Below, piece after piece: positions 3,817 through 44,067 of a stretch of 64,000 bases of DNA. This DNA comes from an uncultured Bacteroidota bacterium. Lineage in GTDB: Bacteria; Bacteroidota; Bacteroidia; Bacteroidales; F082. Below the pieces are notes generated by a model. It ran no database searches. It saw only the letters and a program-made list of their open reading frames with translations, and was not told where the DNA came from. The DNA lies in NCBI GenBank assembly GCA_937912115.1, contig CALDOI010000191.1, positions 1 through 64,000 on the forward strand, read 5' to 3'. A program made the position numbers and the translations under genes. Position 1 is the first letter of the stretch; every line of letters begins with the position of its first letter.

Positions 3817-3868
3817 GCTTGAAGTAGGAAGCCTGGCTTCGCTCTTCTGACTTCCGCCTTCTGTCAAA
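3817..3868. repeat. Inverted repeat of GAAGNNN heptads between convergent genes
   Basis: TTTGATAGAAGCTTGAAGTAGGAAGCC/TGGCTTCGCTCTTCTGACTTCCGCCTTCTGTCAAA. Confidence 0.78.
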
Positions 3869-3918
3869 TTATTGAGGATAACAACTAAATTAATCCGAAG
3901 TGAAAAACAATTCTGTGG

Positions 3919-4707
3919 CTATTGTTTGGAAATCCTTGAAATCACTATTGGATCACTTTTTTGGATTCCAAGTAGCGAAGCAGCTTTTCCTTTATTTATA
4001 GACACTTCAAGGGAATCATTGCTGGTAAACAATGCTACAATTTCACCAGGGCGAACATCACCATATGAATCATGAACTTCTGTAACTTTATATCTTTGCG
4101 ATCTAAATGATATTTCAAATTTTGAGTTGGAAATAAAGCTTTTGAATTCGGCTTTTGAAATGTTTGTTATCAGGTTCTGGTAATTGTCGATATGAATTAT
4201 CATACCTTTTAAAGTATCTTCAATAATAACAGGCTTAAAAAGCATCTTATTTACAAGTTCAAGCTTATCAGGACCGAGGTCTTTTGCATCTCCTCCTTTT
4301 GCAAGATGAGCCGCAGCCTTAGCAAATCGATCACGACTTGAAAAAGTATGGTTTGATGATTCAAGCGGGATATCTAGTTCATAAATATTTTCGGGCTGGT
4401 GATCAAATATTAATGAAAATATGCCGTCATCAGTACCTATAAAATACTGCTTGTTATAATAAGCCACTATGTGCATATCCTTAAGAGATTCCTCGGTATT
4501 GATGCCAATAATGTGCACGGTGCCATCGGGAAAACTCTGAGATGCATTCTTTAGAATATAAGCAGCCTCAATTGAATCGAAAGGTTGAATTTGATGAGTG
4601 ATATCTACAATTAGTGCCTCGGGATGAAATTTATAAATCATACCTTTTACCGCTGAAACATAATAGTCACTTGTTCCCCAATCACTAATTAATGTAATTA
4701 TCCCCAT
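3919..4707 (-). CDS. SAM hydroxide adenosyltransferase / SAM-dependent chlorinase-fluorinase family (DUF62)
   Basis: MGIITLISDWGTSDYYVSAVKGMIYKFHPEALIVDITHQI...IGTDDGIFSLI. Confidence 0.88.
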   Translation of the reverse strand: MGIITLISDWGTSDYYVSAVKGMIYKFHPEALIVDITHQIQPFDSIEAAYILKNASQSFPDGTVHIIGINTEESLKDMHIVAYYNKQYFIGTDDGIFSLIFDHQPENIYELDIPLESSNHTFSSRDRFAKAAAHLAKGGDAKDLGPDKLELVNKMLFKPVIIEDTLKGMIIHIDNYQNLITNISKAEFKSFISNSKFEISFRSQRYKVTEVHDSYGDVRPGEIVALFTSNDSLEVSINKGKAASLLGIQKSDPIVISRISKQ

Positions 4708-4901
4708 CTCTTTTCTATATTCCTATAGTTTGTTATCCATTGATTATGATGAATATCACGCCATCAAAACAAGTAAGTAATAATAGGTAATTCACCATTT
4801 CATGCGAAAAATCAAAATTATAAAAATTGCTACTCTGTTTAGAGTATTTTTTTAATATTTTTGAAAGTTATTCTAATAGATGGAAGCATGAGGTTAAGCC
4901 T

Positions 4902-5852
4902 ATGAGTGAGAGGGTAGTACAGTTGGACTTGGGTAGTCCTTTGGAGTTTTATGGCCCGGGCGATGTTAATTTAAATTTAATTAAGTCATTATTTCCTAAG
5001 TTAAAGATAATTGTTAGGGGAGATATTATTAAATTAATTGGGACTGAGGATGATATAAATAACTTTGAAAAAAGGTTAGAACTACTAACTATTCAATTCG
5101 AAAGATTTGGAAAAATAAACCAAGAAGTAGTAAAAAGAATAATGGGAGAGGAGCCAGAGGAAAATGGCATACATGACTCTCAAGATTCAGATGTACTTGT
5201 TTATGGCAGGCATGGTAAAATAATTAAAGCTCTTACCATCAATCAAAAAAGAATGGTTGAATGTGCTGACAAAAATGATTTGATTTTTGCAATAGGTCCT
5301 GCCGGTACAGGTAAAACTTATACGGCTGTTGCTTTGGCGGTAAGGGCATTGAAAAACAGAGAGGTAAAAAAAATTATTCTTGCACGTCCCGCAATTGAAG
5401 CAGGAGAGAGTCTTGGATTTTTACCTGGTGATATGAAGGATAAACTTGATCCATATCTTCAACCACTTTATGATGCGCTTAGGGATATGCTTCCAACGCA
5501 GAAGTTTTTATCATATCTTGAAGATGATACAATTGAAGTTGCACCCTTGGCATTTATGAGAGGTAGAACTTTAAGTAATGCCTACGCGATATTGGATGAA
5601 GCTCAAAATGCAACCGAAAGTCAGCTAAAAATGTTTTTAACCAGAATGGGTAAATCATCAAAATTTATTGTAACAGGTGATGTTACTCAAATCGACCTTC
5701 CCCGACAAAAACTATCCGGCTTATTACAGGCTCCTGAACTACTCACTGGGATTAAGGGAATTGAATTTATCTATCTTGATGGGAGAGATGTTGTTAGGCA
5801 TAAACTTGTTACACGAATAATTGAAGCATATAATAAATCTGAAAATAAATAA
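4902..5852 (+). CDS. phoH: PhoH family ATPase
   Basis: [18 protein letters not shown] Walker [13 protein letters not shown] at 4902 (MSERVVQLD) is the likely start. Confidence 0.9.
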
Positions 5853-5862
5853 ATCTATAAAC

Positions 5863-6816
5863 ATGAAAGAAGCAATAACCAGAACAGATTTTAATTTTCC
5901 AAATCAGAAGAACGTTTATCACGGTAAAGTGCGTGATGTATATAATATTGGTGAAGAACTTTTAGTGATGGTTGCCAGCGATCGCATTTCAGCATTCGAC
6001 GTTGTACTACCCGAAGGCATACCATATAAAGGTCAGGTATTGAATCAAATAGCAGCTAAATATTTGGATGCTACCGCTGATATTGTACCCAACTGGAAAT
6101 TGGCAACTCCCGATCCGATGGTAACCGTTGGGCATTATTGTAACCCATTTCCTGTTGAAATGATCATTAGAGGTTATTTAACTGGCAGCAGTTGGCGTAC
6201 ATATAAAAGCGGAGCAAGACTAATTTGTGGTGTTCCTGTTCCTGATGGCCTTAAGGAACATCAGCGTTTTCCAGAGCCAATAGTTACTCCAACAACCAAA
6301 GCTGATGAGGGACACGATGAGGATATCTCAAAGGAAGAAATTATAGCACAAGGATTGGTGAGTGCTGAGGATTATCAGAAATTAGAAAATTACACTAAGA
6401 AATTATTTAAGAGGGGAACCGAAATTGCTGCCGAAAAAGGATTAATACTTGTGGATACCAAGTATGAATTTGGTAAAATTGGCGATCAGATTTATTTGAT
6501 TGATGAGATTCATACTCCTGACTCGTCAAGATATTTTTATGCTGATAAATATGAAGAGAGGTTTGCAAAGGGTGAACAGCAAAAGCAGCTTTCGAAAGAG
6601 TTTGTACGTGAATGGCTTATGGAAAATGGATTCCAAGGTCAGGAAGGTCAAAAGGTTCCGGAAATGACAAACGAAATAGTTGAAAGCATATCTAATAGAT
6701 ACATTGAGTTATTCGAACAGGTTACTGGTGAGAAGTTTGTAAAAACACCTTCTGAAAGTGTGCTCAGCAGAATTGAGAAAAATATCAATGATTTTTTGCA
6801 AGAAAAAGATAATTAG
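5863..6816 (+). CDS. purC: Phosphoribosylaminoimidazole-succinocarboxamide synthase
   Basis: [44 protein letters not shown]. Confidence 0.93.
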
Positions 6817-6846
6817 CTTTCAGTGAGTTCTGGATTCCAAATAGGA

Positions 6847-6879
6847 TTAATATAAACATTATATCTTAATTTATATTAA
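6847..6879. repeat. AT-rich perfect inverted repeat TTAATATAAA/TTTATATTAA downstream of purC
   Basis: 10-bp perfect arms, 13-nt loop. Confidence 0.7.
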
Positions 6880-7016
6880 TTCTGGATTGTATTGTAGAAT
6901 TGTATATAATTGCTGTTAATAAAAATTTTATTAAAATGTCTTCGAGGCACTTATGTACATACTTTTTTTTCTAAATTTACGGATTCGGCAACGCATTGTT
7001 AAATTAAACATAACTT

Positions 7017-8228
7017 ATGTTGAGGTTTATAATTAATAGTTACTTCTTGATTACTTTATTTTTGTTGCTTGGCACGGATAATCAGTTGTTTAGCCAGAGT
7101 AATAATAATGATCAGGATAATACCGATTTGGTGAATTTTTCATCATTAAGTCCTGTTCAGTCAGAGATGGATGAGATGCGAGGTTGGGCAAAGCAGGACA
7201 ATGGAAGTTGGCTCTCGGCGAAAAATCGAATTCCTTTTACTGATGAAAAAACTAATAAAGGTACCGGAGGTGAACGTAAACTGGGTCAGGATAACATAAT
7301 AACTTTGCAATTAAGGAAGGTTATGATTAAAAACAAGCAATATAATGTTCTTGTTAAGAAATATTTCGATGGCCAATATGAATTTCCTGTTCTTCATGAA
7401 AATTGGCGTGGGTTTAAATCACTTGATTTTTTTGTTTTTCCCAGTTATAAATTGGAAGAAATATTACCGAATGAAATACCCTTTAATGAACAATATGCTG
7501 TTAATCTTCAGTTATATGCTAGAGGTACTATAAGGGATTATGAAAAAAAACAGGAAGATGATGAGATAGTAGCAGCAATACAACGTGTTGAAAGAGGGGA
7601 GATTGTCAACGACTGGAATATTGTTTTTGCTGTATTCCCTATTAAAAATGGAGATAATGAAGTTATTCGCTTTAAACTTATTAAATCTTTCAACAGAAAT
7701 TATTTAGCCAGTTTTTATACTGCTCCATCAAATTGGGAGAGAAATTTTGAAATGACCTTTTACGAAATTAATTTTTTCCGATTTAAATCATTTATACGTG
7801 ATGCTCAGGAATATGTACTCGATGTTACTGAGAATGTTGATCACCTTACCCTCGAAGGAGCTTATAAAAATAATTATAATTGGGGAATTCTAAGATATCA
7901 AATGGGTGATTGGCCTAGCGCCATCGATTATTTTAATGAGGCCTTAAAGATTAATCCAGACCCTGATGATTTCCTAATTTATTCGTTTAGGGGAAATGCC
8001 AGAAGTAAGATGCAGAAATACAACGATGCTATCGATGATTTTGATAAAGCTTTGGATATGCAACCTAAAGACATTATGGACTATTCAAATTGGGTTAAAA
8101 ATTATTTCAATCGTGGTGTTGCTAAGTATTATTTGGATGACCTGGATGGTGCCTGTAAAGATTGGAATAAGGCTCTTGAATTAGGCTTTGGTCAGGCGCA
8201 TGATTTTATAATGGATTATTGTGAATAA
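7017..8228 (+). CDS. TPR-containing secreted protein of unknown function
   Basis: Signal-like N-terminus; C-terminal TPR repeats (GDWPSAIDYFNEALKINPDPDDFLIYSFRGNARSKMQKYNDAIDDFDKALDMQP). Confidence 0.7.
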   Translation: MLRFIINSYFLITLFLLLGTDNQLFSQSNNNDQDNTDLVNFSSLSPVQSEMDEMRGWAKQDNGSWLSAKNRIPFTDEKTNKGTGGERKLGQDNIITLQLRKVMIKNKQYNVLVKKYFDGQYEFPVLHENWRGFKSLDFFVFPSYKLEEILPNEIPFNEQYAVNLQLYARGTIRDYEKKQEDDEIVAAIQRVERGEIVNDWNIVFAVFPIKNGDNEVIRFKLIKSFNRNYLASFYTAPSNWERNFEMTFYEINFFRFKSFIRDAQEYVLDVTENVDHLTLEGAYKNNYNWGILRYQMGDWPSAIDYFNEALKINPDPDDFLIYSFRGNARSKMQKYNDAIDDFDKALDMQPKDIMDYSNWVKNYFNRGVAKYYLDDLDGACKDWNKALELGFGQAHDFIMDYCE

Positions 8229-8246
8229 AAACAAGGTTTAACTCAA

Positions 8247-9413
8247 ATGCCTAACAGAAATTCAATTAAAATACTTGCTACTATTCTTATTATCGCTTTC
8301 GCGATGAATGGGTTTAGTCAAATGCGTAAAAAATCCAATACTAAACTATCTAATAATTGGCAAGTAAACTATAACCTTGGTTTTACAGAATTTTATGGTG
8401 ATGCGAGTAATAACGGGTATTTTCAAAAGTTTTCGGGTGAGATAGCATTTGCAACAGGGCTTACGGTACGAAAGTATTTTAATCCAATTTTTGGTTTGGG
8501 TTTCAATTTATGGTATTCAGGACTTAAAAGTCATAAAACAAAAAGTGCAACTGGAATTCCCGTTAATACTTATTTAACAGGAAACTATTTTGATGGCAAT
8601 GTTAATCTTCTAATCGACTTTAATAATCTTTTCTGGGGTCCAAGTTCTCGTAAATTTTCTGTTTATGGGCTTATTGGTTTAGGATATGGATCGTGGAATA
8701 CACAGTTAACCGACTCACTATCAGGTTTGGTTATTAATAGTGGTGATGCAATTGGAAGCATTACCTTCAAAAAAGGAGGCTTTGTAATACCCATTGGTGC
8801 AGGCCTTAATTATATGTTAAACGAAAATTGGGCTGTGAATTTTGAGATGAATTTACGTACCGTACTTAATGATGATGTTGATGTTTGGCGAGATGGTTTT
8901 AAATATGATCAACCCTTATATACCAGCTTTGGAGTGTCATACTTCTTTAATGGAATTGCGAAGCCAAAAAACAAATCACAACGACCGCAAATGAAATCGG
9001 TAAAGCAGGAAACGCTTAAACCGGTTGTTCCTATATATAATTATAGATTACAATCTACAAATAAAGCATCAGGATCATCAGGATCATCAGATTCCGGTGT
9101 ACTTCTAATTGAGCCTCCTACAAAAAAACCGGAAATTTCATACTCTGGTATTGTTTATCGTGTACAAATACTTGCTAAACGTGATAATTTGCCATCGTTG
9201 AGTTCTTTAAAAAGTAAGTACAATATAGATGGTGAGATTTATGAAAATTATCAGGATGGTATTCATCGTTACTCAACCGGTATGTTCCTAACATATCAGG
9301 AAGCTGTTCAATATAGCCAAGTTATAAAAAATAAAGGAGTTCACGATGCATTTGTAGTAGCATATCAGAATAATATAAGAATACACATTACCCCTGAAAT
9401 GAAAAGAAAGTAA
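8247..9413 (+). CDS. Outer-membrane beta-barrel protein with C-terminal SPOR-like domain
   Basis: Signal peptide, Gly/aromatic-rich alternating barrel region; C-terminal YRVQILAKRDNLPSLSSLKSKYNI...YSTGMFLTYQEAVQYSQVIKNKGVHDAFVVAY. Confidence 0.6.
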   Translation: MPNRNSIKILATILIIAFAMNGFSQMRKKSNTKLSNNWQVNYNLGFTEFYGDASNNGYFQKFSGEIAFATGLTVRKYFNPIFGLGFNLWYSGLKSHKTKSATGIPVNTYLTGNYFDGNVNLLIDFNNLFWGPSSRKFSVYGLIGLGYGSWNTQLTDSLSGLVINSGDAIGSITFKKGGFVIPIGAGLNYMLNENWAVNFEMNLRTVLNDDVDVWRDGFKYDQPLYTSFGVSYFFNGIAKPKNKSQRPQMKSVKQETLKPVVPIYNYRLQSTNKASGSSGSSDSGVLLIEPPTKKPEISYSGIVYRVQILAKRDNLPSLSSLKSKYNIDGEIYENYQDGIHRYSTGMFLTYQEAVQYSQVIKNKGVHDAFVVAYQNNIRIHITPEMKRK

Positions 9414-9581
9414 TCAGTGATTTTTTTTATTATTGATATTATTTTTAAAAAATACTATCCAAAACCATAATTATTGGAAAAATTTGCATTCAAAATTCAT
9501 TAAATACTCTACTTAAGCTATTTAATTTTATTTTTTTAGAAAAAAAACTATAAAAAAGTATCAAACTAAATAATATAAGTA

Positions 9582-9589
9582 TACATTTG
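9582..9589 (+). promoter_or_regulatory. Candidate Bacteroidota -7 element TACATTTG upstream of cold-shock gene
   Basis: Matches TAnnTTTG 29 bp upstream of the ATG. Confidence 0.4.
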
Positions 9590-9618
9590 CAAAATATCTA
9601 ATTATTAAATTTTTAACA

Positions 9619-9810
9619 ATGAATAAAGGCACAGTAAAATTCTTCAATGAATCAAAAGGTTTTGGTTTTATCACAGATGAGGACTCAAACAACGAATATT
9701 TTGTACACATAACCGGTTTAATCGACAAGATTAACGAAGGTGACTATGTAGAATTTGAATTGAAAGAAGGAAAAAAAGGTTTAAATGCTGTAAACGTAAA
9801 AACAGTTTAG
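9619..9810 (+). CDS. Cold-shock domain protein
   Basis: MNKGTVKFFNESKGFGFITDEDSNNEYFVHITGL (RNP1/RNP2 motifs). Confidence 0.95.
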   Translation: MNKGTVKFFNESKGFGFITDEDSNNEYFVHITGLIDKINEGDYVEFELKEGKKGLNAVNVKTV

Positions 9811-9835
9811 GAACTCTTTTTTATGAAGATATTAT

Positions 9836-9866
9836 AGCCTGTCAATATTTTGACAGGCTTTTTTTT
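9836..9866 (+). terminator. Rho-independent terminator of cold-shock gene
   Basis: AGCCTGTCA-(loop)-TGACAGGCT followed by a T-run. Confidence 0.9.
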
Positions 9867-9868
9867 GT

Positions 9869-11119
9869 TTAGTAGCTTAGAATGAATTCTTTTCCCATTG
9901 GTATTACTGCTTCTTCTGAGACTTTTACCGGTCTATATCTAACGCCAATTCCCATATTTGTAAATATGGCAGTGCTATCATCAGTTAGCACAGCCCATTC
10001 GATGGGTTTCCACTCATTATCATTAAAAACAGCCAAATAAACAAATTGTGAAGTATCAACTAATTGAATATTGATACTTTTGGTTGCTATATATTCGTTT
10101 GAAACATCAATATAATTATAGTCCCCTAAAAATGGTGGGGTATGAGTGCTCTTTTCCTTAGTGGTAAATAAACCAACTGGGTTGTTACCATGTATTCGTC
10201 TATACACCTTCGCTGTTTTAATTGGTTGATAAGGGTTTGTATTATCATCTGAATTCTTGAGATAAATTTTTTCTTTATTTGGTAGTATTACCGTTGTTGA
10301 ATAATATCCTAATATAGAATCAGCAAAAAACGGAGTATAATCCATGGCTGCTGCAATACCCAAACTTCTTAGAGCCTTAATCTTATATATGTTAATATCA
10401 CGAAGATCTCCGGATTTATTTTCTTCAGTTAGTTCAATACTCTGCACATTCGGATTATAAACTATTCTTTCGTCATAAGTTATACTGCTGTTAATTTCAT
10501 CATTTAGTAAGATAGCAATCTCTTTTTGGTTTTTGTTTCCATCCAATAGATGACCATATTTATCCTGAAAATTATCAGTATAATTTTCAATCTCTTCATT
10601 TGAAACTCTGTACGGGAGTATGTAGTTGCAAAAAGTGTTGAAATCATAACTATTTTCGAACAGACTACTATTCCATATATCGTAAGATGTTTTGATGTGA
10701 TTAATTAAAAAATCGGGACTTATGTTTTTGAAATCTAACCAAATTGAATCGGCCTTGTAACTTAATCTGCCCACTACTTTTTCGATCGAATCACGTTTTT
10801 GTTTTATAGATGAAATATCAGGGAAGTCATAAATGTTTATCTCGATAGGATTATCCAATGAATCGACAAGTGACTGTTGTATACTATAATTATTGTCAAG
10901 GTTTTCTATTAAGTAATATGCTGATTTGAGTTTTAAGGAATCTTCCGGCTTCTGAAAGGTAAGAATTAGTCTCATTAGACCCGGTTTATGAATACCGGAT
11001 TGATTTAATACTTCTTGAATTTCATTTGGTATGCCAGGTTTCTTACTCTTTAAGCAGCTATTACAAATTATAGCCAGAATAACTAGAAGTAAAACTGATT
11101 TATTTGAGTGAATCCGCAA
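9869..11119 (-). CDS. Lipoprotein with possible transglutaminase-like region
   Basis: Lipobox (LLVILAIICNSC); KIKALRSLGIAAAMDYTPFFADS resembles bacterial transglutaminase-like proteins. Confidence 0.5.
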   Translation of the reverse strand: MRIHSNKSVLLLVILAIICNSCLKSKKPGIPNEIQEVLNQSGIHKPGLMRLILTFQKPEDSLKLKSAYYLIENLDNNYSIQQSLVDSLDNPIEINIYDFPDISSIKQKRDSIEKVVGRLSYKADSIWLDFKNISPDFLINHIKTSYDIWNSSLFENSYDFNTFCNYILPYRVSNEEIENYTDNFQDKYGHLLDGNKNQKEIAILLNDEINSSITYDERIVYNPNVQSIELTEENKSGDLRDINIYKIKALRSLGIAAAMDYTPFFADSILGYYSTTVILPNKEKIYLKNSDDNTNPYQPIKTAKVYRRIHGNNPVGLFTTKEKSTHTPPFLGDYNYIDVSNEYIATKSINIQLVDTSQFVYLAVFNDNEWKPIEWAVLTDDSTAIFTNMGIGVRYRPVKVSEEAVIPMGKEFILSY

Positions 11120-11183
11120 AACCGAGTATATAAGGTTGGTTAAGGTTTACTCATAAAACACAATTTTGTTTCACAAAACAGAG

Positions 11184-11948
11184 TTATATTTCTTTAATGG
11201 ATTTTTCTGGTAACCAACCAACACTACCATTTTTTATTTTTATCTCAACCCAATTATCAATTTTATCTGTAATCATAACTTTTGTTCCCTCATGGATTAC
11301 AAATAAATCAACGGCATTCTGCGTTGGGGAGCTTTTTACTGTTATGGAGGAGGTGAAAACAATTCCTTCCTTATGATCAATATTAAAATAATATTTCTGT
11401 GCAGCAAGAGATGATGATACAACAGTTATTATCAAAAAAAGCAATCCGATATAGAATGACAATTTCCTGTTACCTCGTTTTCGTGATAGGATAAATATAC
11501 CAATTGTAATCACAAGAAGTGCAAAAGAGATTAAAGTAAATATTGCCCATGAGTCAGCGTCAAGAAAATTATAGAAAAAATTCCACCATTGCTGATAAAA
11601 AAGTTCAGGGACTTTTTCAATCTTATCAACGATCATGCTATTTGCAATATTCAAATTGTAATTAATACTTTCATCATTTGGAAGAAGCTTTTTGGCCTTT
11701 TCGAAATAAAGTATTGCCGAGGCAATATCATTATTCTTGTAACATGTATTACCCATGTTATAATATAATTCCCCTGATTCTAATCCTTGGTCGATAACTT
11801 GTTGATAAGTAGATAGAGCAGAATCATAAAGCCCCTTATTATAAGCATTGTTTGCATCAACAATTAAGGAATCAGCGTTGTTAGTAAAGCCGCTTAAGGT
11901 TATAGCATTTAAAATAATAATTATCGTGTATTTTATGGCCTTAGTCAT
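11184..11948 (-). CDS. batE: BatE-like TPR and SH3-type protein
   Basis: TPR YYNMGNTCYKNNDIASAILYFEKAKKLLPNDESINYNLNIA; C-terminal SH3-like segment; position in bat operon. Confidence 0.8.
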   Translation of the reverse strand: MTKAIKYTIIIILNAITLSGFTNNADSLIVDANNAYNKGLYDSALSTYQQVIDQGLESGELYYNMGNTCYKNNDIASAILYFEKAKKLLPNDESINYNLNIANSMIVDKIEKVPELFYQQWWNFFYNFLDADSWAIFTLISFALLVITIGIFILSRKRGNRKLSFYIGLLFLIITVVSSSLAAQKYYFNIDHKEGIVFTSSITVKSSPTQNAVDLFVIHEGTKVMITDKIDNWVEIKIKNGSVGWLPEKSIKEI

Positions 11949-11959
11949 TATTAAATATT

Positions 11960-13932: not shown

Positions 13933-14697
13933 CTACCAATCAATATCACTTTTACTTCCTTTTACTGCCTGAGCTTTTTGCTTTTGAAGCTTTTGCAGAG
14001 TTTTTTTCTCGTCATTTTGTAAAGCATCAAGCATGCGTTGAGCATCCTGTTTGGATATTTGTTGAGGTTGCTGTTGCTGATCTTTTTGTTGATCTTCCTT
14101 ATTTTGGTCCTTTTTATCCTGATCTTTGTTCTCGTCTTTCTGATCGTCTTTTTTATCCTGATCCTTCTTGTCTTGGTTTTCTTTATCCTTGTTTTCCTGA
14201 TCCTTATTTTGATCTTTGTTCTCTTCGTCTTTCTTGTCCTGATCTTGATTTTGATCCTGCTGTTGTTGCTGTTCTTTTAGTTTCTTTCTTGCGTATTCAA
14301 GATTATATTTCGCATTTTTATCGTTAGGATTTAGTCGCAATGAGTTTTTAAATGAATCAATACTTTCCTTATATTTATTCTCCTTCATAAAAGTATTTCC
14401 CAGATTATAATATGCAGCAGCTTTTTCCTCATTTGTTGTGTTTCGCTCAATTATTTCAGAAAAAAGTTTTGTCGATTCTTCATAGTTCTCCTGTTCATAC
14501 ATTGCATCACCAAGGTTAAAAGTACCTTTTGAGTAATCTGGTTTTTCCATTAACGCTTTGCGATATTCTTTTTCGGCATCCTGATAATTGCCTTCGCTAT
14601 ATTCGCTATTGCCCTTGCGTACTCTTTTTTTCTCCTTTTGCGAGTAACCGGCTGTTGCCGTAAGGGCAATAATTAGAAATATTATTATAGTTCGCAT
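13933..14697 (-). CDS. batC: BatC-like TPR protein with low-complexity Q/K/D/E tail
   Basis: TPR (AAAYYNLGNTFMKENKYKESIDSFKNSLRLNPNDKNAKYNLEYA) plus KEQQQQQDQNQDQDKK tail; start MRTIIIFL at 14697. Confidence 0.82.
   Translation of the reverse strand: MRTIIIFLIIALTATAGYSQKEKKRVRKGNSEYSEGNYQDAEKEYRKALMEKPDYSKGTFNLGDAMYEQENYEESTKLFSEIIERNTTNEEKAAAYYNLGNTFMKENKYKESIDSFKNSLRLNPNDKNAKYNLEYARKKLKEQQQQQDQNQDQDKKDEENKDQNKDQENKDKENQDKKDQDKKDDQKDENKDQDKKDQNKEDQQKDQQQQPQQISKQDAQRMLDALQNDEKKTLQKLQKQKAQAVKGSKSDIDW
14058..14277 (-). repeat. Coding low-complexity Q/K/D/E repeat in batC
   Basis: Repeated ctt/gtc/ttg codon pattern encoding (K/D/Q/E)n. Confidence 0.8.
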
Positions 14698-14701
14698 AGT
14701 A

Positions 14702-15739
14702 CTATTCTTTCTTTCCAAAAAAATCAAATTTCTTAGCCCATCGTGTTTTTCTATCAGCTATCAATAATTCAATTATTAACATAATTATTGTCAGACCTAA
14801 AAAGATTTGGAATCTATCTTCGTAATCTGTAAATTGTCGTGTTTCGATTTCTTTTTTGTCAATTTCATTTATATCATCGAAGATTCTTTGTAAACCACTG
14901 CTCGCATTATTTGCTCGGGCATAGGCTCCACCACCGGCAGCAGCAATCTGTCGTAACATATCTTCATTAAGTTTTGTAATAACTGTATTGTTTTGTTTAT
15001 CCTTTTTAAAACCAGTTTGTGTTTCATATTGATTATATATTGGAATAGGAGCACCTTCGGGTAATCCCATGCCAATGGTAAACACATTTATTCCAAGTTC
15101 ATTGGCCATCTTTGCTGCTTCCAGTGGATCATCCTCGTGGTTTTCACCGTCGGTAATTACAATAATTGCTTTATTGTGTTCGGTTTCACCAAAACTTAAA
15201 GTTGCCATTTCAATGGCTTCACCAATGGCCGTTCCCTGTGTGGGTACTATTTTTGTGTCGACGGCAGAAAGGAAGAGCTTCGCTGCTGAATAATCAGTTG
15301 TTAATGGAAGCTGTTTATAGGCATTTCCGGCGAAAATTATAATACCGACTCTATCGCCCTGAAGTTTATCAACCAATGTGGATATAGCAAGTTTTGACCT
15401 TTCAAGCCGATTTGGCTTTATATCCTCTGCCAACATTGAATTTGAAACATCTAATACAAGATATAAATCGATTCCTTCTCGTTTTATATTTTCAAGTTTT
15501 GAGCCTATCTGGGGATCCACTATCCCTACGATTAAAAATGTTGCGGCTATTAGCAAAATAATGAACTTTAGCACTGGTGTTGATGACGAAACTTCAGGCA
15601 TCAGTTTGGCAATTGTTTTGCTGTCGCCAAATCGGTTTCTTGCTTTTTTTAACCATAATCTGTACAGCCAGAATAGAATTGCAAAAACAAGCAAAACTCC
15701 AAGTAGGATAAAGTATTCAGTATGTGCGAATTTTATCAT
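14702..15739 (-). CDS. batB: BatB, von Willebrand factor A domain membrane protein
   Basis: LYLVLDVSNSMLAEDIKPNRLERSK (MIDAS), flanking TM segments. Confidence 0.9.
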   Translation of the reverse strand: MIKFAHTEYFILLGVLLVFAILFWLYRLWLKKARNRFGDSKTIAKLMPEVSSSTPVLKFIILLIAATFLIVGIVDPQIGSKLENIKREGIDLYLVLDVSNSMLAEDIKPNRLERSKLAISTLVDKLQGDRVGIIIFAGNAYKQLPLTTDYSAAKLFLSAVDTKIVPTQGTAIGEAIEMATLSFGETEHNKAIIVITDGENHEDDPLEAAKMANELGINVFTIGMGLPEGAPIPIYNQYETQTGFKKDKQNNTVITKLNEDMLRQIAAAGGGAYARANNASSGLQRIFDDINEIDKKEIETRQFTDYEDRFQIFLGLTIIMLIIELLIADRKTRWAKKFDFFGKKE

Positions 15740-17760: not shown

Positions 17761-17776
17761 TATAAATGTGATTATT

Positions 17777-18652: not shown

Positions 18653-18660
18653 TTTTAAAA

Positions 18661-18695
18661 GTTATACGTTATTTGTTAAAAGTTAAGTGTTGTTA
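18661..18695. repeat. Five-unit heptad array GTTATAC GTTATTT GTTAAAA GTTAAGT GTTGTTA
   Basis: Read directly; strict 7-nt period. Confidence 0.75.
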
Positions 18696-27429: not shown

Positions 27430-27458
27430 TTAGTAGTTCGGAATTATCAACTATTAAT

Positions 27459-27532
27459 GGAGGAAAGGAAGATTGGAAGGATGGATGTTGTTTGACCAAT
27501 TATCCAATGTCCAATGACTAATTATCTAATTA
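27459..27532. repeat. Composite array: GGAAGATT-type octads followed by CCAATNN-type heptads/octads
   Basis: GGAGGAAA GGAAGATT GGAAGGAT GGATGTTG then CCAATTAT CCAATGT CCAATGA CTAATTAT CTAATTA. Confidence 0.7.
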
Positions 27533-28000: not shown

Positions 28001-28039
28001 AAGCACAGATACACAAATTAATCTGTGAATCTGTGGCTT
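28001..28039. repeat. Imperfect palindrome of CACAGATN octads
   Basis: AAGCACAGATACACAAATTAATCTGTGAATCTGTGGCTT, near self-complementary. Confidence 0.75.
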
Positions 28040-29821: not shown

Positions 29822-29916
29822 CGGGGTTATATGGGTATAGGGTATAATGGTATGGGGTATGAAGTAGTCCATTTTATACCCCCTATACCTTTATATCCAT
29901 TATACCCAATATCCCC
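29822..29916. repeat. Imperfect inverted repeat built of GGGTATA-like units
   Basis: GGGGTTATATGGGTATAGGGTATAATGGTATGGGGTAT ... ATACCCCCTATACCTTTATATCCATTATACCCAATATCCCC. Confidence 0.75.
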
Positions 29917-30095
29917 ATTAAAAGGATATTTATAAATCTTGGTTTTAATTTTCTTCTATGTTAATCTATAATAAATGGGGCGAAATTTAGTTAGTATTAA
30001 CACAAATATGTTTAAAAGAAATAATACACAAATTAGCTACTCATCAATATCAAAGTAAATTTACCAAAGTTATAAACTATAGAAATCATTTGCCA

Positions 30096-33904: not shown

Positions 33905-33949
33905 CGTTGTAGGGCATAGTTCGCCCGACCAATCATATATAATATCAAG

Positions 33950-36448: not shown

Positions 36449-36469
36449 CCACCTTCTAGTTTTAAAGAA

Positions 36470-37898
36470 ATGACCAAGTTGTATCTTTCCACGTTAGTCC
36501 TACTTGCTTTTTCTATTTTAATATCGTGCAAACCAACCAACAACACTAATTTGAAACAACCTAAGGCTAAACAAATAGCTAAAGAACTGGTAATGCATGG
36601 TGATGCCCGCATCGATAATTATTATTGGCTTATAGTATTGATACTGTTAGCAGACGAAAATTTGATATCTATTTTAGGAATACTGTAACAAATAAGTTAT
36701 TTGATGAGGTAATATCAAATACCACCGGTAATATTGTTTGGGCCAATGATAATCGTACGGTTTACTATCAGGTTAAGGATAAGACCTTGAGATCATATAG
36801 AATTTATAAACATGAAGTGGGAACTGCTGTTGAAACTGATGTGCTTATTTATGAAGAAGCTGATCCAACATTTTCAGTTTATGTATATAAAACAAAATCT
36901 GACAAGTATCTGGTAATAAGTTCCGAAAGTATTCTTTAGAGTGAGTACCGAATTCTGGATGCAAATAATCCCGATGGTAAGTTTAATATTTTTCAACAGA
37001 GATTGCCAAAGGTTGAATATAGTATTAGGCATCAAAACGGCAGGTTTTTAATACTTACAAATTTTGAGGCTTCAAACTTTCGTTTGATGGAAGTTGGAGA
37101 GAATGAGACGGATATAAATAACTGGACTGAAGTTATTGAGGGAAGAGATGACGTAATGCTTGAAGACTTAAAAGTATTTTCCGTTTTTTTTGTTGTTACA
37201 GAACGTAAAAACGGACTTTCGAAATTCAGGATATTTAATACTAGTTTAGTTAGTGATTATTTCCTGGATTTCGAGGAAGACGATTACTATGTAACTTCGT
37301 CGGCAAATCCTGATTTTAGTTCTCAAAAATTTAGGTATAATTACACATCATTAAAAACGCCTCGCACTGTTTATGATTATGATATGATTGATCGTGAGCA
37401 AAAAATGTTAAAAAGACAAGAGGTAGTTGGAGGATATAACCCAGATGATTATATAACCGAAAGAAAGTACGCAGTAGCCCGCGATGGTGTAAAATACCCA
37501 TTTCGATAGTGTACAAAAAAGGATATAAGATTGACGGGAAAGCCCCCTTATTGCTATATGCCTACGGCTCGTATGGAATCAACATTGAGTCAACATTCAG
37601 GTCGTTGCGTTTAAGTTTACTAGATAGAGGATTTGCTTTTGCGATAGCTCATGTTCGCGGAGGCGAGGAATTGGGACGCCATTGGTACGAAGATGGTAAA
37701 ATGCTAAACAAGAAGAACACTTATTTTGACTTTATTGATTGTGGTAAATATTTGGTTGCCGAAAAATACACTTCACCTAATAGTATGTTTGCAATGGGTG
37801 GTAGTGCAGGCGGACTATTGGTTGGGGCAGTTATTAATTATAGCCCCGAATTATTTAAAGGAGCAATTGCAGCCGTTCCGTTTGTTGATGCTGCTTAA
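36470..37898 (+). pseudogene. Degenerate S9-family prolyl oligopeptidase / oligopeptidase B-like protease
   Basis: Four colinear ORF fragments (36470-36688, 36625-36939, 37003-37509, 37509-37898) with internal deletion, in-frame TAG, frameshift and C-terminal truncation; GGSAGGLLVGA nucleophile region still readable. Confidence 0.88.
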
Positions 37899-37915
37899 TC
37901 CTGAGAAGTACTAGC

Positions 37916-37950
37916 ATAACTATTGGTGAATACATTCACCAAAAAGTTAT
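37916..37950. repeat. Palindrome / stem-loop after pseudogene and helicase gene
   Basis: ATAACTATTGGTGAATACATTCACCAAAAAGTTAT: TGGTGAAT/ATTCACCA and ATAACT/AGTTAT pairing. Confidence 0.6.
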
Positions 37951-37973
37951 AGTATTGTTTATGATATTTGGTA

Positions 37974-39257
37974 TTAACGAGGTCTTCGAGAAAAGGTTCT
38001 CCGGCTTTTTTGTTGGTTTTCACTTCCTCCGGCATTTGAAGAATTGGGAGAACGCCTTCTTTGAAATTGCTTCTTTGAGGCATTTGGTTTTACAGACTTT
38101 TTAACTTCAACCTGAGTACCATCATCCTCAAAAGGGTTTTCCTCAGCTATGGTTATGGTTTGATCAATAAGCTTTTGAATATCTTTCAAATATGCTCTTT
38201 CCTCAGCATCGCAAAATGAAAGTGCGATACCACTTGCTCCTGCTCTACCGGTTCGGCCAATTCGATGAACATAGGTTTCAGGAATATTTGGAAGATCAAA
38301 ATTTATTACATGCGAAAGATCATCTATATCAATTCCACGAGCTGCAATATCAGTTGCAATAAGAACCTTTGTGTGGCCGCTTTTGAAATTGCTGAGAGCT
38401 CGTTGCCTTGCTCCTTGCGATTTATTGCTGTGAATAGCTTCGGAAACTATTGATGCTTTGTCAAGAATTTTTACGATTTTATTGGCTCCATGTTTGGTTC
38501 TTGAAAAAATTAGCACCGACCCAACTTCATCTGTTTTTAGAATATGCAGAAGTAGTTTTGGTTTATCTTTTTTACTAACATAGTATAGAAACTGCTCAAC
38601 CTTTTCAGCCGTTGTTTGCTCTGGCTTTACTGTTACTTTCTCAGGGTTTCCAAGTATTTTTTGTGATAGCCTTACTATATCAGGTGGCATGGTTGCCGAA
38701 AAAAACAATGATTGTCTTTTTACAGGTAATTTTGCAATGATTTTTCGAATATCGTGGATGAAGCCCATATCTAGCATACGATCTGCTTCATCAAGCACTG
38801 AGAATTCAATATCACTTAAAGTAATAAATCCTTGTTCTATTAGATCGAGCAAACGACCAGGAGTTGCAATTAGTATTTCTACGCCCTGACGCAGGCTTTG
38901 TGTTTGAGCCAATTGCTTAACTCCACCAAAAATTACAGTATTTCGGATTCCGGTATACTTACCATAGGTTGTAAAACTATCAGCAATTTGGATCGCAAGT
39001 TCACGTGTTGGTGTAACAATTAAGGCTCTTATCTTTCGCCGTCCTTTGATTTGTTGCGGATTATTGTAGATATGTTGAAGTATGGGAATGGCAAATGCTG
39101 CCGTTTTTCCTGTACCTGTTTGGGCACAACCTAATAAGTCCTTTCCTTGTAGTAGTATTGGAATTGATTGTTCCTGGATGGGAGTTGGGTGTGAATAGCC
39201 TTCAGCCTCTATGGCTTTCAGGATGGGGTCGATAACCCCTAAAGATTTGAATGTCAT
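37974..39257 (-). CDS. DEAD-box RNA helicase (RhlE-like)
   Basis: [41 protein letters not shown]. Confidence 0.93.
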
Positions 39258-39334
39258 GTAATAACTATAATGTGCGGCAAAGATACATCATTTGTTTGGA
39301 TATCCTGTTTTTTATTAATTTGGAGAGGTGTGAG

Positions 39335-39369
39335 GTTATCCGTTACTTGTTATTAGTTATATGTTATAC
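39335..39369. repeat. Five-unit heptad array GTTATCC GTTACTT GTTATTA GTTATAT GTTATAC
   Basis: Read directly; strict 7-nt period. Confidence 0.8.
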
Positions 39370-39487
39370 GCTTTGTGTGTTGCTTTGGAAGACCAACACT
39401 TTATATGTCCTTATATGGTTAAATAATCCATCGGAATAATGGTTTGTAGAGCGATCTGTTATTTTAGGTGAGTATTGTTCTAAGCCG

Positions 39488-39531
39488 AATCAACGTATAA
39501 CTATTTAACACATAACTTATAACTAAATAAC
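39488..39531. repeat. Inverted-orientation GTTATNN array overlapping the helicase stop codon
   Basis: Reverse complement: GTTATTTA GTTATAA GTTATGT GTTAAATA GTTATAC GTTG. Confidence 0.78.
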
Positions 39532-40848
39532 AGTTACCCTTATTTTTTTCTTTTTAAGTTTAGTATTATTTATCGATGAGATTAGGTTTTCAACTACCGA
39601 TTCGTGAACTCCTACAAATGCGCAATCTTGTTTTAATTCGATAATTCCGATCTGATCGTTGGTAAGCCCGCCTTGTTTTATGCATAACCCTGCAATATCG
39701 CCTTTTGAAATTTTATCTTTTCTACCACCTGAAATAAATAAAGTGCTCCATCGCGTTCTTTCCTGATCGTTCGACTTCTGTAATTCAATATCTCGAAAGC
39801 TATCCTTTGCGGGAACGTTAATAAAGTCAGGAAGATCTTCCTTTACCCACTGAATAACATATGCTGTCCCCTCCTTATGCATACGTGCTGTTCTTCCGTT
39901 TCTATGTGTGAACTCATATTTTTTAAGTGGAAATTGATAATGGATTATAAATTTTATTTCCGGCACATCAATACCTCTGGCTGCCAGGTCGGTGGCAATG
40001 ATAATTTGGTGAGTACCATTTCTGAATTTAATTAGAGCTCGTTCTCTATCTTTCTGCTCCATTCCCCCGTAGAAGCAGCCATGATTAACTTTTTTTTCTG
40101 TGAGATAATCACTCACATATTGAATTGTGTCTTTAAAGTTACAGAAGATAATTCCAGGCTGGTTTCCAATGTGATTTAGTAAAGTTAAGAGAGCGTCAAG
40201 TTTGTCTTTTGATGGTGAAAGGACTGTCTTGATTTTTAGATTGGAGATTTGTTCGTGTGAGTAATCAAGGTAGGCTGGATTTCTCATTCCAACGAATGCA
40301 GGAATTTCAACTCTCTGGGTTGCTGAGGTAAGTATCTTCTTTTGAACCTTTGGTAAGGCATCGGCTATTTCGATCATTTCCGATTCGAATCCAATTTCAA
40401 GTGATTTATCGAACTCATCCAGAACAAGTGTGGTGATTGAATCAGTTACAAACCTCTCTCTTCGTAAATGGTCGGCAATACGTCCGGGAGTTCCAATAAG
40501 TATAGCTGGCGGATGTTTTATGTCGATCATATCCTGAGAGCCTGATCGGCCACCATATACGGCTATAGCCTTATAACCTGTTCCCATTTGTCGGATAACT
40601 TGTTCGATTTGAATAGCCAGTTCCCGTGATGGAACAATAATCAGAACTTGTATTTCAGATTTTTCAGGATCCAGTTCGCTAATAATTGGTAATAGGAAAG
40701 CAAGTGTTTTTCCTGTTCCTGTTGGAGATAGTAATACGGTCGATGGGTTAGATTGAATAGTTAAAAGAGCCTCTTCCTGCATGGGATTTAGGTTTTTAAT
40801 ATTCAATTTATCGAGAATTTCCTGTTGGTTTTTTATGATGCTTGACAT
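39523..40848 (-). CDS. DEAD-box RNA helicase with C-terminal DbpA-type RNA-binding domain
   Basis: LLSPTGTGKTLAFLLPI, LVLDEFDKSLEIGF, HRNGRTARM; C-terminal GGRKDKISKGDIAGLCIKQGGL. Confidence 0.88.
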   Translation of the reverse strand: MSSIIKNQQEILDKLNIKNLNPMQEEALLTIQSNPSTVLLSPTGTGKTLAFLLPIISELDPEKSEIQVLIIVPSRELAIQIEQVIRQMGTGYKAIAVYGGRSGSQDMIDIKHPPAILIGTPGRIADHLRRERFVTDSITTLVLDEFDKSLEIGFESEMIEIADALPKVQKKILTSATQRVEIPAFVGMRNPAYLDYSHEQISNLKIKTVLSPSKDKLDALLTLLNHIGNQPGIIFCNFKDTIQYVSDYLTEKKVNHGCFYGGMEQKDRERALIKFRNGTHQIIIATDLAARGIDVPEIKFIIHYQFPLKKYEFTHRNGRTARMHKEGTAYVIQWVKEDLPDFINVPAKDSFRDIELQKSNDQERTRWSTLFISGGRKDKISKGDIAGLCIKQGGLTNDQIGIIELKQDCAFVGVHESVVENLISSINNTKLKKKKIRVTVI

Positions 40849-40961
40849 GGTGCAAAGGTAGGATTTACTTAATACTTGCAATTGGTATTCTTGGTCCTTT
40901 TGTATTTGTACTAAAATGACCGCATCAATATTGTTTATTGATAGTCGTTAAATCATTTTTG

Positions 40962-42038
40962 TTATTCTTCTATACAAATCCCATCAATTTGTGTGATGGA
41001 ATCGGTGGCAGGTGAGAGATATCTTCCAGTAGTTATTTTTTTAAATGATTGATAATTAATTTTACTAAGTTGATCCATATATTTTGAATGGGTTATTTCC
41101 GTGAATGAGTTAGTTAAGCTACTTGTTACTGTATTGTATTGATTTAAAGAAGATTGTTTGATTTCCTGGATTTGAGTAGCCACCATATTCATTAACTCTT
41201 CATTTTCCAGAACTTTTTTTCTAACCAATGTTGTTACTATTATTGCAATACCTAATTCGACAAGTAGAGGTAATCCAAGAATTGAAAATATTGCAACACT
41301 TACAGAAGAAATAATGGCACCTTTGGCAACATGACCTGATTTGATTTCGTTTTTCTTAATAAATACTACATAAGCAGTAATAAATATCAAAGCGACTGCC
41401 ATTATTGGATTAGCTGATGCAATAGATGTAACGCCCATACTACCAATAACTTCTGCTATTTTCTTTTGGTCGTTATTTTTTAGGCCAAAAAAAACTGAAG
41501 CAGCACCTATAGAGGTTCCAATAATTTCAAATGCATCAAAACTAAGTAAATCATAGAAGTATGTTTTATCAACAAAAGGTATTTTTTCAGAACACCAATC
41601 TGCATACTTATCATAATTGCCTTTTTCCCAAGTGAAGAATGGAAGACCTTGTTTGGTAGTTAGATCTTTCCAAATAGATGACACATAATTCACTATCTCG
41701 TCAGTATTGGAATCATCTTGTTTTGTATTCTTTATTCTATCCCAAGCACTAAATAAGTCATGACCTCCATCAAACATTCTATGATTTCCACCCCCAATAT
41801 GTGATCTTAGGTATTCCATATCAAGAGCTTTATCATAAGCAGAGGCTGTTCCTTTGGTAATACTTTCTGACCAATTTAATAAATCAGGGTTCGAAAGAAA
41901 AGGCATTGTTGTCCCCGACAATAAACTAGACACTTGTTTGTATTTATGCATGGCCTTAAGATTTGCTTTTGATGCAGTTTCACGTAATGATTCAGAATTA
42001 TCTTTTAATAACTTTTTGAATCTATTAATATTGGCCAT
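40962..42038 (-). CDS. Uncharacterised multi-TM protein with HRMFDGGHD motif
   Basis: Intact 358 aa ORF; LRSHIGGGNHRMFDGGHDLFSAWDRI; three or more hydrophobic segments; no family recognised. Confidence 0.6.
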   Translation of the reverse strand: MANINRFKKLLKDNSESLRETASKANLKAMHKYKQVSSLLSGTTMPFLSNPDLLNWSESITKGTASAYDKALDMEYLRSHIGGGNHRMFDGGHDLFSAWDRIKNTKQDDSNTDEIVNYVSSIWKDLTTKQGLPFFTWEKGNYDKYADWCSEKIPFVDKTYFYDLLSFDAFEIIGTSIGAASVFFGLKNNDQKKIAEVIGSMGVTSIASANPIMAVALIFITAYVVFIKKNEIKSGHVAKGAIISSVSVAIFSILGLPLLVELGIAIIVTTLVRKKVLENEELMNMVATQIQEIKQSSLNQYNTVTSSLTNSFTEITHSKYMDQLSKINYQSFKKITTGRYLSPATDSITQIDGICIEE

Positions 42039-42140
42039 TTCATTTTATGTTTAGCACTGCTAATTTACAAAATAATTTGTTTTGAGATTGGGACAAACTG
42101 TATCAAATCAGTGATAGTATAGGTATTGCAAATATAAGAA

Positions 42141-42298
42141 CAGGGCTGCTGATCGGCAGGGATTGAAGTGGTAGCTTGGTGAAATGGGTGCTGATATTTT
42201 TTGTTGGCAGGCGAAGGCTGACGGAGGAAGCCCACGTACTGCCTACAAAAATACAGTGGCCATGAAGCAACTACAAACGGAAAGCCCGTTAAGCCGCA
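42141..42298 (+). ncRNA. Candidate structured RNA element with nested helices (strand uncertain)
   Basis: GGGCT/AGCCC, CTGC/GCAG, GTAG/CTAC, TTTTTTGTtGGCAG/CTGCCtACAAAAA and GGCT/AGCC pairings around conserved-looking GGGATTGAAGTGG and ACGGAAAGCCC. Confidence 0.5.
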
Positions 42299-42354
42299 AA
42301 AAAAAGCTATTTATTCTAAACTAGAACCAAATCTATTATATCTCTCAAAGTAAT

Positions 42355-42362
42355 TATCTTTG
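42355..42362 (+). promoter_or_regulatory. Candidate -7 element TATCTTTG
   Basis: TAnnTTTG 22 bp upstream of the ATG at 42385. Confidence 0.5.
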
Positions 42363-42384
42363 CGCCCAATTTTAAAAGATATAA

Positions 42385-44028
42385 ATGATTTCAGTTGACG
42401 GACTTGCGGTTGAATTTGGTGGAACTACGCTTTTTAAGGATATTGGTTTTGCCATAAATGAGAAGGATAGGATTGCCTTGATGGGAAAAAATGGGGCGGG
42501 AAAATCGACTTTGCTTAAAATTATTGCGGGTATAAAAACTGCCACACGAGGGAAGGTTACATCGCCAAATGATGCTGTGATTGCCTATTTGCCACAACAT
42601 CTGCTTGCTGTTGATAGTCGCACCCTATTTGAAGAGGCAGCTCAGGCTTTTGAGCAAGCTTTAAATACGGAACACGAAATTGAAGAATTGAATGTACAGC
42701 TTTCGTCGCGTACCGATTATGAATCGCCTGAATATTTTGAGCTTATCGAGCGTGTGTCGACTCTTAGTGAGTCGTTCTATTCGGTGGGGGAGATTAATTA
42801 CGATGCGGAAATAGAAAAGATACTGTTGGGGCTTGGATTTTTGCGGAAAGATTTTGATAGACCCACCAGCGAGTTTAGTGGTGGATGGCGCATGCGCATA
42901 GAGTTGGCTAAGATATTGCTTCAAAAGCCTGATTTGTTGTTACTTGATGAGCCTACAAATCATATGGATATTGAGTCGATTCAGTGGTTTGAGGATTTTC
43001 TTGTAACAAGTGCTAGGGCGGTAATCGTAATTTCGCACGACAGGGCTTTTGTGGATAATATTACCACCCGAACCATTGAGATAACAATGGGGCGCATATA
43101 CGATTACAAGGTTACGTATTCGAGCTATCTGCAACTTAGAAAAGAGCGCCGTGAGCAGCAGCAAAAACAGTTTGAGGAACAGAAAAAATTTATTGCGGAT
43201 AACCAGGATTTTATTGACAGATTTAGAGGGACTTATTCGAAAACAAATCAGGTACAATCGCGGGTTAAAATGTTGGAGAAGTTGAGCATTGTAGAGATTG
43301 ATGAGGAGGATAAGTCAGCGTTGCGATTAAAATTTCCTCCTTCGCCACGATCCGGAGCCCACCCTGTTGTGTTGGAAGGTGTAGCTAAGTCCTATGGTGA
43401 TAACACCGTGTTTTCGGATGTTAGCTTTAATTTACAAAGGGGTGAACGGGTTGCTTTTGTTGGCAAAAATGGGGAAGGTAAATCCACCATGGTGAAATGT
43501 TTAATGAATGAAACGGATTGTGATGGTAAATTGGAAATTGGTCATAATACGCTGATTGGATATTTTGCCCAAAATGAAGCTTCGTTGCTTGATGAAGGGA
43601 TTACCGTTTTTGATACTATTGATGATGTTGCTAAAGGGGATATTCGCACAAAAATTAAAGATATCCTCGGGGCTTTTATGTTTGGTGGCGATAGCTGGAA
43701 TAAAAAGGTAAAAGTCTTGTCGGGTGGCGAACGTACTCGCCTTGCTATGATTAAATTACTTTTGGAACCGGTTAATTTATTAATACTTGATGAGCCTACT
43801 AATCATTTGGATTTGAGGACTAAGGACATATTAAAAAGTGCCTTGAAGGATTATGATGGAACACTTATTCTCGTGTCGCATGATCGTGATTTTTTAGATG
43901 GTTTGGTTAGCAAAGTTTATGAGTTTGGTAATAAGCAAGTGAAGGAACATATGGGTGATATTCACAGTTTTTTATCGAAGAAGAAGATGGAAAATTTACG
44001 GGAAATAGAACGTACGGTGAAGAAGTAG
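42385..44028 (+). CDS. ABC-F family ATP-binding cassette protein
   Basis: Two ABC domains (GKNGAGKSTLLKII, LLLDEPTNHMD; GKNGEGKSTMVKCL, LSGGERTRLAMIKLLLEPVNLLILDEPTNHLD), no TM. Confidence 0.93.
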   Translation: MISVDGLAVEFGGTTLFKDIGFAINEKDRIALMGKNGAGKSTLLKIIAGIKTATRGKVTSPNDAVIAYLPQHLLAVDSRTLFEEAAQAFEQALNTEHEIEELNVQLSSRTDYESPEYFELIERVSTLSESFYSVGEINYDAEIEKILLGLGFLRKDFDRPTSEFSGGWRMRIELAKILLQKPDLLLLDEPTNHMDIESIQWFEDFLVTSARAVIVISHDRAFVDNITTRTIEITMGRIYDYKVTYSSYLQLRKERREQQQKQFEEQKKFIADNQDFIDRFRGTYSKTNQVQSRVKMLEKLSIVEIDEEDKSALRLKFPPSPRSGAHPVVLEGVAKSYGDNTVFSDVSFNLQRGERVAFVGKNGEGKSTMVKCLMNETDCDGKLEIGHNTLIGYFAQNEASLLDEGITVFDTIDDVAKGDIRTKIKDILGAFMFGGDSWNKKVKVLSGGERTRLAMIKLLLEPVNLLILDEPTNHLDLRTKDILKSALKDYDGTLILVSHDRDFLDGLVSKVYEFGNKQVKEHMGDIHSFLSKKKMENLREIERTVKK

Positions 44029-44043
44029 GTTTAGTTTTTTACC

Positions 44044-44067
44044 GCAGAGGTGCGGAGAAGCAAAGGT
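44044..44067. repeat. Three-unit octad array GCAGAGGT GCGGAGAA GCAAAGGT
   Basis: Read directly, begins 15 bp after the ABC-F stop codon. Confidence 0.55.

What the first reader, a model, noticed from the sequence alone, without database searches (positions are those of the whole stretch)
3817..44067. Synthesis: a class of intergenic arrays sharing a 7/8-nt period but not a unit sequence
At least seven intergenic loci here (3817, 18661, 27459, 28001, 29822, 39335/39488, 44044) contain short degenerate tandem arrays. The units differ (GAAGNNN, GTTATNN, GGAAGNNT, CCAATNN, CACAGATN, GGGTATA, GCNNAGNN), but each has a G- or C-anchored conserved half, a variable half and a 7-8 nt period. Several form inverted pairs, and two overlap a stop codon. 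This suggests an unknown mechanism producing or maintaining phase rather than sequence, such as template slippage in repair, a periodic-binding protein, or an RNA-guided/repair polymerase footprint. This is the strongest candidate here for an undescribed phenomenon, though it may only be relaxed AT-rich spacer evolution.
Basis: partly seen in the sequence, partly recalled or inferred. Interest (0 to 1): 0.7.

Follow-up and report, generated by a model that had tools for sequence, protein, structure and literature searches.

The report
Array flanks of IVS-like selfish elements
The odd 7-8-letter DNA repeats between genes here are real, and most look like gene-less relatives of repeat arrays that flank two very common unstudied bacterial genes (the "four helix bundle" IVP gene and the GxxExxY gene) in several phyla, which ties a puzzling repeat class to specific genes that can be tested.

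Summary
Six of the seven loci beat shuffles. In 853 kb of the same genome, degenerate arrays of period 7, 8 and 9 (not 5, 11 or 13) are far above shuffles and about 30 times denser between genes than in genes. The seventh locus, 44044, is a decayed three-unit array that is intact in a sister genome. The units recur as families across the genome.

Arrays of this class flank two small-gene families. For IVP/S23 "four helix bundle" genes (Avd-like fold), 91% of 151 loci have an array and 56% have one on both sides, against 18% and 0% of 104 same-size ORFs. GxxExxY genes are the second family. The two arms share a unit in inverted orientation, but different loci use different units. The pattern extends to cyanobacterial plasmids. 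A published Coxiella 23S-rRNA intervening sequence also has variable heptamers before its S23 gene (PMC4990558).

Orthologous spacers show recurrent, lineage-specific array gain.

Best reading: the window holds solo arrays of IVS-like selfish elements. Protein recognition of arrays and the route of spread are inferred, not shown. I found no paper making this link, in an open-access library only.

The parts
3814..3865 (.). Inverted pair, 7-nt: GAAGNNN arm 3814-3831, CTTCNNN arm 3837-3863
   Evidence: periodic p .049, inverted p .003; same hairpin type at L007:18575-18644 and L208:14533-14622 of this genome
18655..18691 (.). Single 7-nt GTTATNN array filling the moxR-DUF58 spacer
   Evidence: p .008; absent from the same spacer in G034, G045, G064; independent array in G021
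27456..27487 (.). 8-nt GGAAGNNT array, left half of a composite
   Evidence: p .007; same composite at L003:1664-1797
27493..27530 (.). 7-nt CCAATNN array, right half of the composite, overlaps the stop codon at 27526
   Evidence: score 8.1
28004..28036 (.). Hairpin of CACAGATN / ATCTGTGN units (GxxExxY type)
   Evidence: inverted p .001; same unit flanks GxxExxY genes in L140, L146, L159
29825..29918 (.). Inverted pair GGGTATA/GGTATNN (29825-29861) and ATACCNN (29874-29918)
   Evidence: periodic p .002, inverted p .001; sister hairpin at L203:5269-5418; similar unit GGGTGTA flanks an IVP gene in Calothrix
39336..39371 (.). 7-nt GTTATNN array, left arm
   Evidence: periodic p .002
39494..39539 (.). 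7-nt NNATAAC array, right arm, overlaps the stop codon at 39523
   Evidence: inverted match to the left arm (score 19 v null maximum 11)
44043..44066 (.). Decayed 8-nt array, three units CGCAGAGG/TGCGGAGA/AGCAAAGG (GxxExxY type)
   Evidence: not significant alone; intact in G069, absent in G034 and G064
507..532 (.). Further 7-nt array (ATAACCC.ACAACAC.AAAACCC), not listed by the finder
   Evidence: score 9.6; TRF hit

Best explanation
The window arrays are solo (gene-less) members of a widespread class of degenerate 7-9-nt arrays that normally flank tiny one-gene elements. The gene is either the IVP/S23 four-helix-bundle protein (TIGR02436, Avd-like fold) or the GxxExxY protein (PF13366/TIGR04256). 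The free-standing elements are the intergenic counterpart of the S23-carrying 23S-rRNA intervening sequences: an inverted pair of arrays around one ORF. Arrays gain, lose and reshuffle units (slippage, recombination), spread to other intergenic spacers, and take on a lineage-specific unit. Both arms keep the same unit. The simplest reason, and an inferred one, is that one sequence-specific factor acts on both arms; the element's own oligomeric protein reading one unit per subunit is the leading candidate. SHOWN: periodicity; association with IVP and GxxExxY genes; shared unit but not shared register between arms; recurrent gain in orthologous spacers; unit families within a genome. INFERRED: that window arrays descend from such elements rather than from a parallel process, that IVP or GxxExxY binds the arrays, and how they move.
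For: IVP loci were collected by protein only, so array presence was not selected. IVP flanks show lag-8 autocorrelation z=35, lag 16 z=30, lag 24 z=32. Arrays occur at 91% of 151 IVP loci (56% on both sides) v 18%/0% of 104 same-size ORFs, 7%/0% of 28 PF01909 genes and 16%/0% of 25 Y1_Tnp genes. Upstream v reverse-complement downstream match: median 20 matched v 11 mismatched for IVP, 16 v 11 for GxxExxY, 11 v 11 for control genes. Cyanobacterial plasmid IVPs: 8 of 10 flanked. Window unit types occur at such genes: GTTATNN at IVP L230, L438, L447, L458; CACAGATN and CGCAGAGN at GxxExxY. Genomes rich in solo GTTATNN arrays carry a GTTATNN-flanked IVP more often (5/34 v 0/60 IVP loci, p=.005). 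Recurrent gain: moxR-DUF58 spacer 21-32 bp without array in G034, G045, G064 v 75 and 68 bp arrays in G000 and G021, with other units in other genera. ElbB-FabK slot with IVP, with solo arrays of other units, or empty. Fold: TM 0.81 to Avd 4dwl. Published: three tandem heptamers, varying in number between strains, before the S23 ORF of the Coxiella IVS (PMC4990558).
Against: No window array has an IVP or GxxExxY gene beside it. No own-genome IVP with GTTATNN arms was found (assembly 90% complete). G133 has 12 strict GTTATNN hits and no IVP; G067 has 16 and only a weak IVP-like match in a 268-aa frame. GxxExxY arrays are irregularly spaced, so only 34% pass the periodic test. Period does not follow deep IVP phylogeny (7 changes v 8.7 shuffled), which weakens strict protein-array coevolution. 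No insertion with target duplication was seen.
Confidence: 0.6

Rival explanations
1. Ordinary simple-sequence-repeat birth: DNA polymerase slippage favours 7-8-nt units (the published explanation for heptamers being the commonest long SSRs), and arrays decay in relaxed spacers. IVP and GxxExxY genes merely sit in tolerant spacers.
For: Heptamer excess is known in bacteria and attributed to slippage (Mrazek 2007, as cited in PMC4679880 and PMC4692102). Arrays are intergenic, arise in orthologous spacers, and some genomes have arrays without a true IVP.
Against: Inverted same-unit arms around IVP genes. Both-side arrays at 56% of IVP loci v 0% of same-size ORFs. The same unit at many unlinked sites of one genome. 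Variation concentrates in some columns more than in a neutral duplication-plus-mutation simulation of similar divergence (dispersion 1.73 v about 1.14).
Confidence: 0.25
2. Arrays are functional RNA hairpins (terminators or 3'-end stabilisers), kept because paired arms form stems.
For: Four window loci are significant inverted repeats; arrays are enriched in convergent spacers.
Against: In 94 IVP loci with two arms the arms share units but not register: best match 9.9 v 8.8 after permuting units, significant in only 17%. Many arrays are single, for example 18661 and most GTTATNN arrays. Oscillatoria L423 arms are in direct orientation.
Confidence: 0.08
3. REP/BIME elements mobilised by a RAYT (Y1 tyrosine) transposase.
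For: Dispersed hairpins, with gene-bearing and solo copies; Y1 genes in this family have inverted flanks (48% with score >=17).
Against: The own genome has only one partial Y1 hit (54 model positions) without arrays; Y1 genes elsewhere lack two-sided arrays (0 of 25).
Confidence: 0.04

Closest known systems
23S rRNA intervening sequences with an S23/IVP ORF (Coxiella, Leptospira)
   Same: One small four-helix-bundle ORF inside inverted repeats; the Coxiella IVS even has three to four tandem heptamers before the ORF that vary between strains (PMC4990558); horizontal acquisition proposed
   Different: Those sit in 23S rRNA helices with a near-perfect stem cut by RNase III; these sit between protein genes, have degenerate arrays as arms, and most copies here have no ORF
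Heptameric long SSRs and STRR repeats (TAACTGA in Beggiatoaceae, GGGAATC in Xanthomonas, GGGGAYT in Nostoc)
   Same: Intergenic 7-nt tandem arrays, genome-specific unit, patchy across taxa, length differs between close relatives (PMC4679880, PMC4692102)
   Different: Described as near-pure repeats and, in the papers read, not linked to a gene family; here degenerate, often inverted, and tied to IVP and GxxExxY genes
REP/BIME with RAYT transposase
   Same: Gene-bearing copy plus dispersed solo hairpins
   Different: Other gene families, and periodic arrays instead of a fixed palindrome
Avd of diversity-generating retroelements
   Same: Same fold (TM 0.81 to 4dwl; weak NCBIfam hit E 1.9e-4)
   Different: Below the Avd model cut-off; no template or variable repeat sought or seen

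Membership tests
IVS / S23-IVP element | Small IVP/S23 ORF between inverted repeats | tested here: met
   At gene-bearing loci: arrays at 141 of 156 IVP loci, inverted arms. Window arrays lack the ORF.
IVS / S23-IVP element | Located in a 23S rRNA helix | tested here: not met
   No rRNA match in the window; loci examined lie between protein genes
IVS / S23-IVP element | Excision by RNase III | not testable with these tools
   -
Heptameric SSR / STRR | Tandem units of about 7 nt in intergenic DNA, above chance | tested here: met
Heptameric SSR / STRR | Near-identical units | tested here: not met
   Units degenerate; mean column deviation 21% in 163 IVP-flank arrays
REP/BIME-RAYT | Y1 tyrosine transposase flanked by the same repeat | tested here: not met
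REP/BIME-RAYT | GTAG/GGAG-tagged palindrome | not tested
Diversity-generating retroelement | Avd partner protein | tested here: inconclusive
   Avd fold yes; Avd equivalog cut-off not reached
Diversity-generating retroelement | Reverse transcriptase with template and variable repeats nearby | not tested
   -

The most novel reading that the evidence does not exclude
IVP and GxxExxY proteins drive a large, undescribed family of minimal selfish elements whose ends are defined by a short-period array of locus-private units rather than by a fixed sequence. The protein (an Avd-like oligomer, perhaps with a host reverse transcriptase) recognises and propagates its own unit, which would make many bacterial heptamer repeats their footprints.
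Probability: 0.3. Interest if true: 0.9.

Novelty: new variant of a known kind. Interest (0 to 1): 0.68.

Why it matters
"Four helix bundle protein" and GxxExxY genes are common in this bacterial family (IVP in 146 of 149 genomes, GxxExxY in 50 of 60) and I found no reported function; heptamer repeats have been noted since 2007 without a driver. A tight, cross-phylum link between them gives the repeats a candidate cause and the proteins a candidate substrate, and places the 23S-rRNA intervening sequences, of unknown origin for more than 25 years, as one special case of a broader element class. Each step can be tested with simple binding and deletion experiments.

Tried and rejected
Global lag test inside the window alone: too weak. 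Rfam: no match. RAYT/Y1 as driver: rejected. Period follows IVP phylogeny: only among close relatives, not below 60% identity. Perfect stem between arms: rejected. IVP in phages: none. Array-flanked IVP with window units GAAGNNN x4, GGTATNN x3 or GGAAGNNT in 156 IVP flanks: none found, so for those units the link rests on architecture and analogy. A cargo gene for GTTATNN arrays: mostly none nearby.
Full report
What is there. The window (AT-rich, 90% coding) belongs to a 3.9-Mb draft genome, G000. Of the seven loci named, six carry arrays that shuffled sequence rarely matches; four of these are also significant inverted repeats. The seventh (44043-44066) fails alone, but its ortholog in G069, next to a 98%-identical gene, reads CGCAGAGG-CGCGGAGA-CGCAAAGG, and it is missing in G034 and G064. 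It is a decayed array.

Genome-wide. In 853 kb of the same genome, period-7, 8, 9 and 10 segments exceed shuffles strongly while periods 5, 11 and 13 do not. Density is 2.7-3.0 per 10 kb in spacers against 0.1 in genes; arrays favour convergent and avoid divergent spacers. The units are not unique to each spot. GTTATNN, GAAGNNN, GGTATNN, GGAAGNNT, CACAGATN and CGCAAAGN recur at unlinked sites, and the composite at 27456-27530 recurs at L003:1664-1797.

The gene link. The same genome has seven PF05635 (IVP, four-helix-bundle) matches and four PF13366 (GxxExxY) matches. Four of the IVP loci inspected, and the GxxExxY genes at C269 and C53, lie between inverted short-period arrays with different units. 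I then collected IVP genes by protein alone: 79 loci from named genomes and about 70 from the window's family. IVP flanks show lag 8, 16, 24 and 32 autocorrelation with z of 24-35. At the same threshold 91% of 151 IVP loci have an array and 56% have one on both sides, against 18% and 0% of 104 same-size ORFs of the own genome; PF01909 and Y1_Tnp control genes have 7% and 16%, and never both sides. Family loci include groups of orthologs, so they are not all independent; in a deliberately spread set of 40 loci, 35 have arrays. On cyanobacterial plasmids 8 of 10 IVP genes inspected are flanked. GxxExxY genes show inverted ACAGAG/ACAGAT/CGAATT-type arms with looser spacing: 34% pass the periodic test and 52% the inverted-arm test.

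Arms share the unit, not the register. Across 94 IVP loci with two arms, the arms match far better than base-shuffled arms (9.9 v 0.3) but hardly better than arms with units permuted (8.8; significant in 17%). A maintained stem does not explain this. A common factor reading units, or unit-level exchange between arms, would. Variation is concentrated in some columns more than in a neutral duplication-mutation simulation (1.73 v about 1.14); the simulation is simple and this is supporting evidence only.

Turnover. The 18655-18691 array fills the spacer between moxR and a DUF58 gene (names from my reading of the sequences, not from a family search). In the same genus this spacer is 21, 32 and 29 bp without an array in G034, G045 and G064, and 75 and 68 bp with related but different arrays in G000 and G021; in other genera the same spacer holds other 7-nt units (CAAATNA, AACCNGT, GTTTACM, AAAGNNT). 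The spacer between ElbB-like and FabK-like genes holds an IVP gene in G000, G018, G009 and G001, solo arrays of other units in G064 and G002, a GxxExxY-type hairpin in G017, and nothing similar in others. Arrays are therefore gained repeatedly and independently. Strict GTTATNN arrays occur in 20 of 149 family genomes, patchily even within the genus; five of nine array-rich genomes examined also carry an IVP gene flanked by that unit, against 0 of 60 IVP loci elsewhere in the family (p=.005).

The protein. IVP models as a four-helix bundle (pLDDT 97.6) closest to 2gsc and 2rld and next to the DGR protein Avd (4dwl, TM 0.81). Both 2gsc and 2rld hold five chains per entry, compatible with a pentamer, which is why a one-unit-per-subunit reading is proposed. 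This is inference.

Literature. Heptamer SSRs are known as the commonest long SSRs and have been ascribed to polymerase slippage (PMC4679880, PMC4692102). PF05635 is recognised as Avd-like (PMC10053308). The Coxiella 23S IVS, called a selfish element, has heptamers of strain-variable number before its S23 ORF and terminal inverted repeats (PMC4990558). No paper found in this open-access library links heptamer arrays in general to IVP or GxxExxY genes; subscription journals were not searchable.

Verdict. The feature is real and broader than the finder thought. That array-flanked IVP/GxxExxY elements exist across phyla is well supported (about 0.85). That the window arrays are solo relatives of them is likely (about 0.65); for the units GAAGNNN, GGTATNN and GGAAGNNT no matching gene-bearing locus was found. 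That the proteins recognise and spread the arrays is a testable proposal (about 0.3-0.4).

Noticed in passing
L170:7236-8321 (G000:C53): An 805-bp unit holding an IVP gene with both arrays is duplicated in tandem without visible change, as if the whole element amplified.
   Followed up: partly
L170:971-10906 (G000:C53): At least a dozen 9-nt CGAATTNNN / AATTCGTNN arrays cluster around a GxxExxY gene in 12 kb.
   Followed up: partly
L196:2310-2530: Arrays of two different units (TTCCAACA 8-nt and TCATTGGTNG 10-nt) appear nested in each other.
   Followed up: no
L204:8856-8909: A pure TATTGAT heptamer array runs off the contig end, so such arrays probably break assemblies and are undercounted in drafts.
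   Followed up: no
L427 (Pseudanabaena galeata plasmid pPg_04): IVP gene directly after cas1-cas2, without a clear array; one of two cyanobacterial exceptions.
   Followed up: no
L423 (Oscillatoria PCC 7112 plasmid): IVP gene with very long 8-nt arrays in direct, not inverted, orientation on both sides.
   Followed up: no
L149, L153, L155, L157: GxxExxY genes sit within several successive hairpin arrays, suggesting local hairpin amplification.
   Followed up: no
window 14144-14256: Degenerate 42-nt / 15-nt tandem repeat inside the ORF at 13933-14727, unrelated to the arrays.
   Followed up: no
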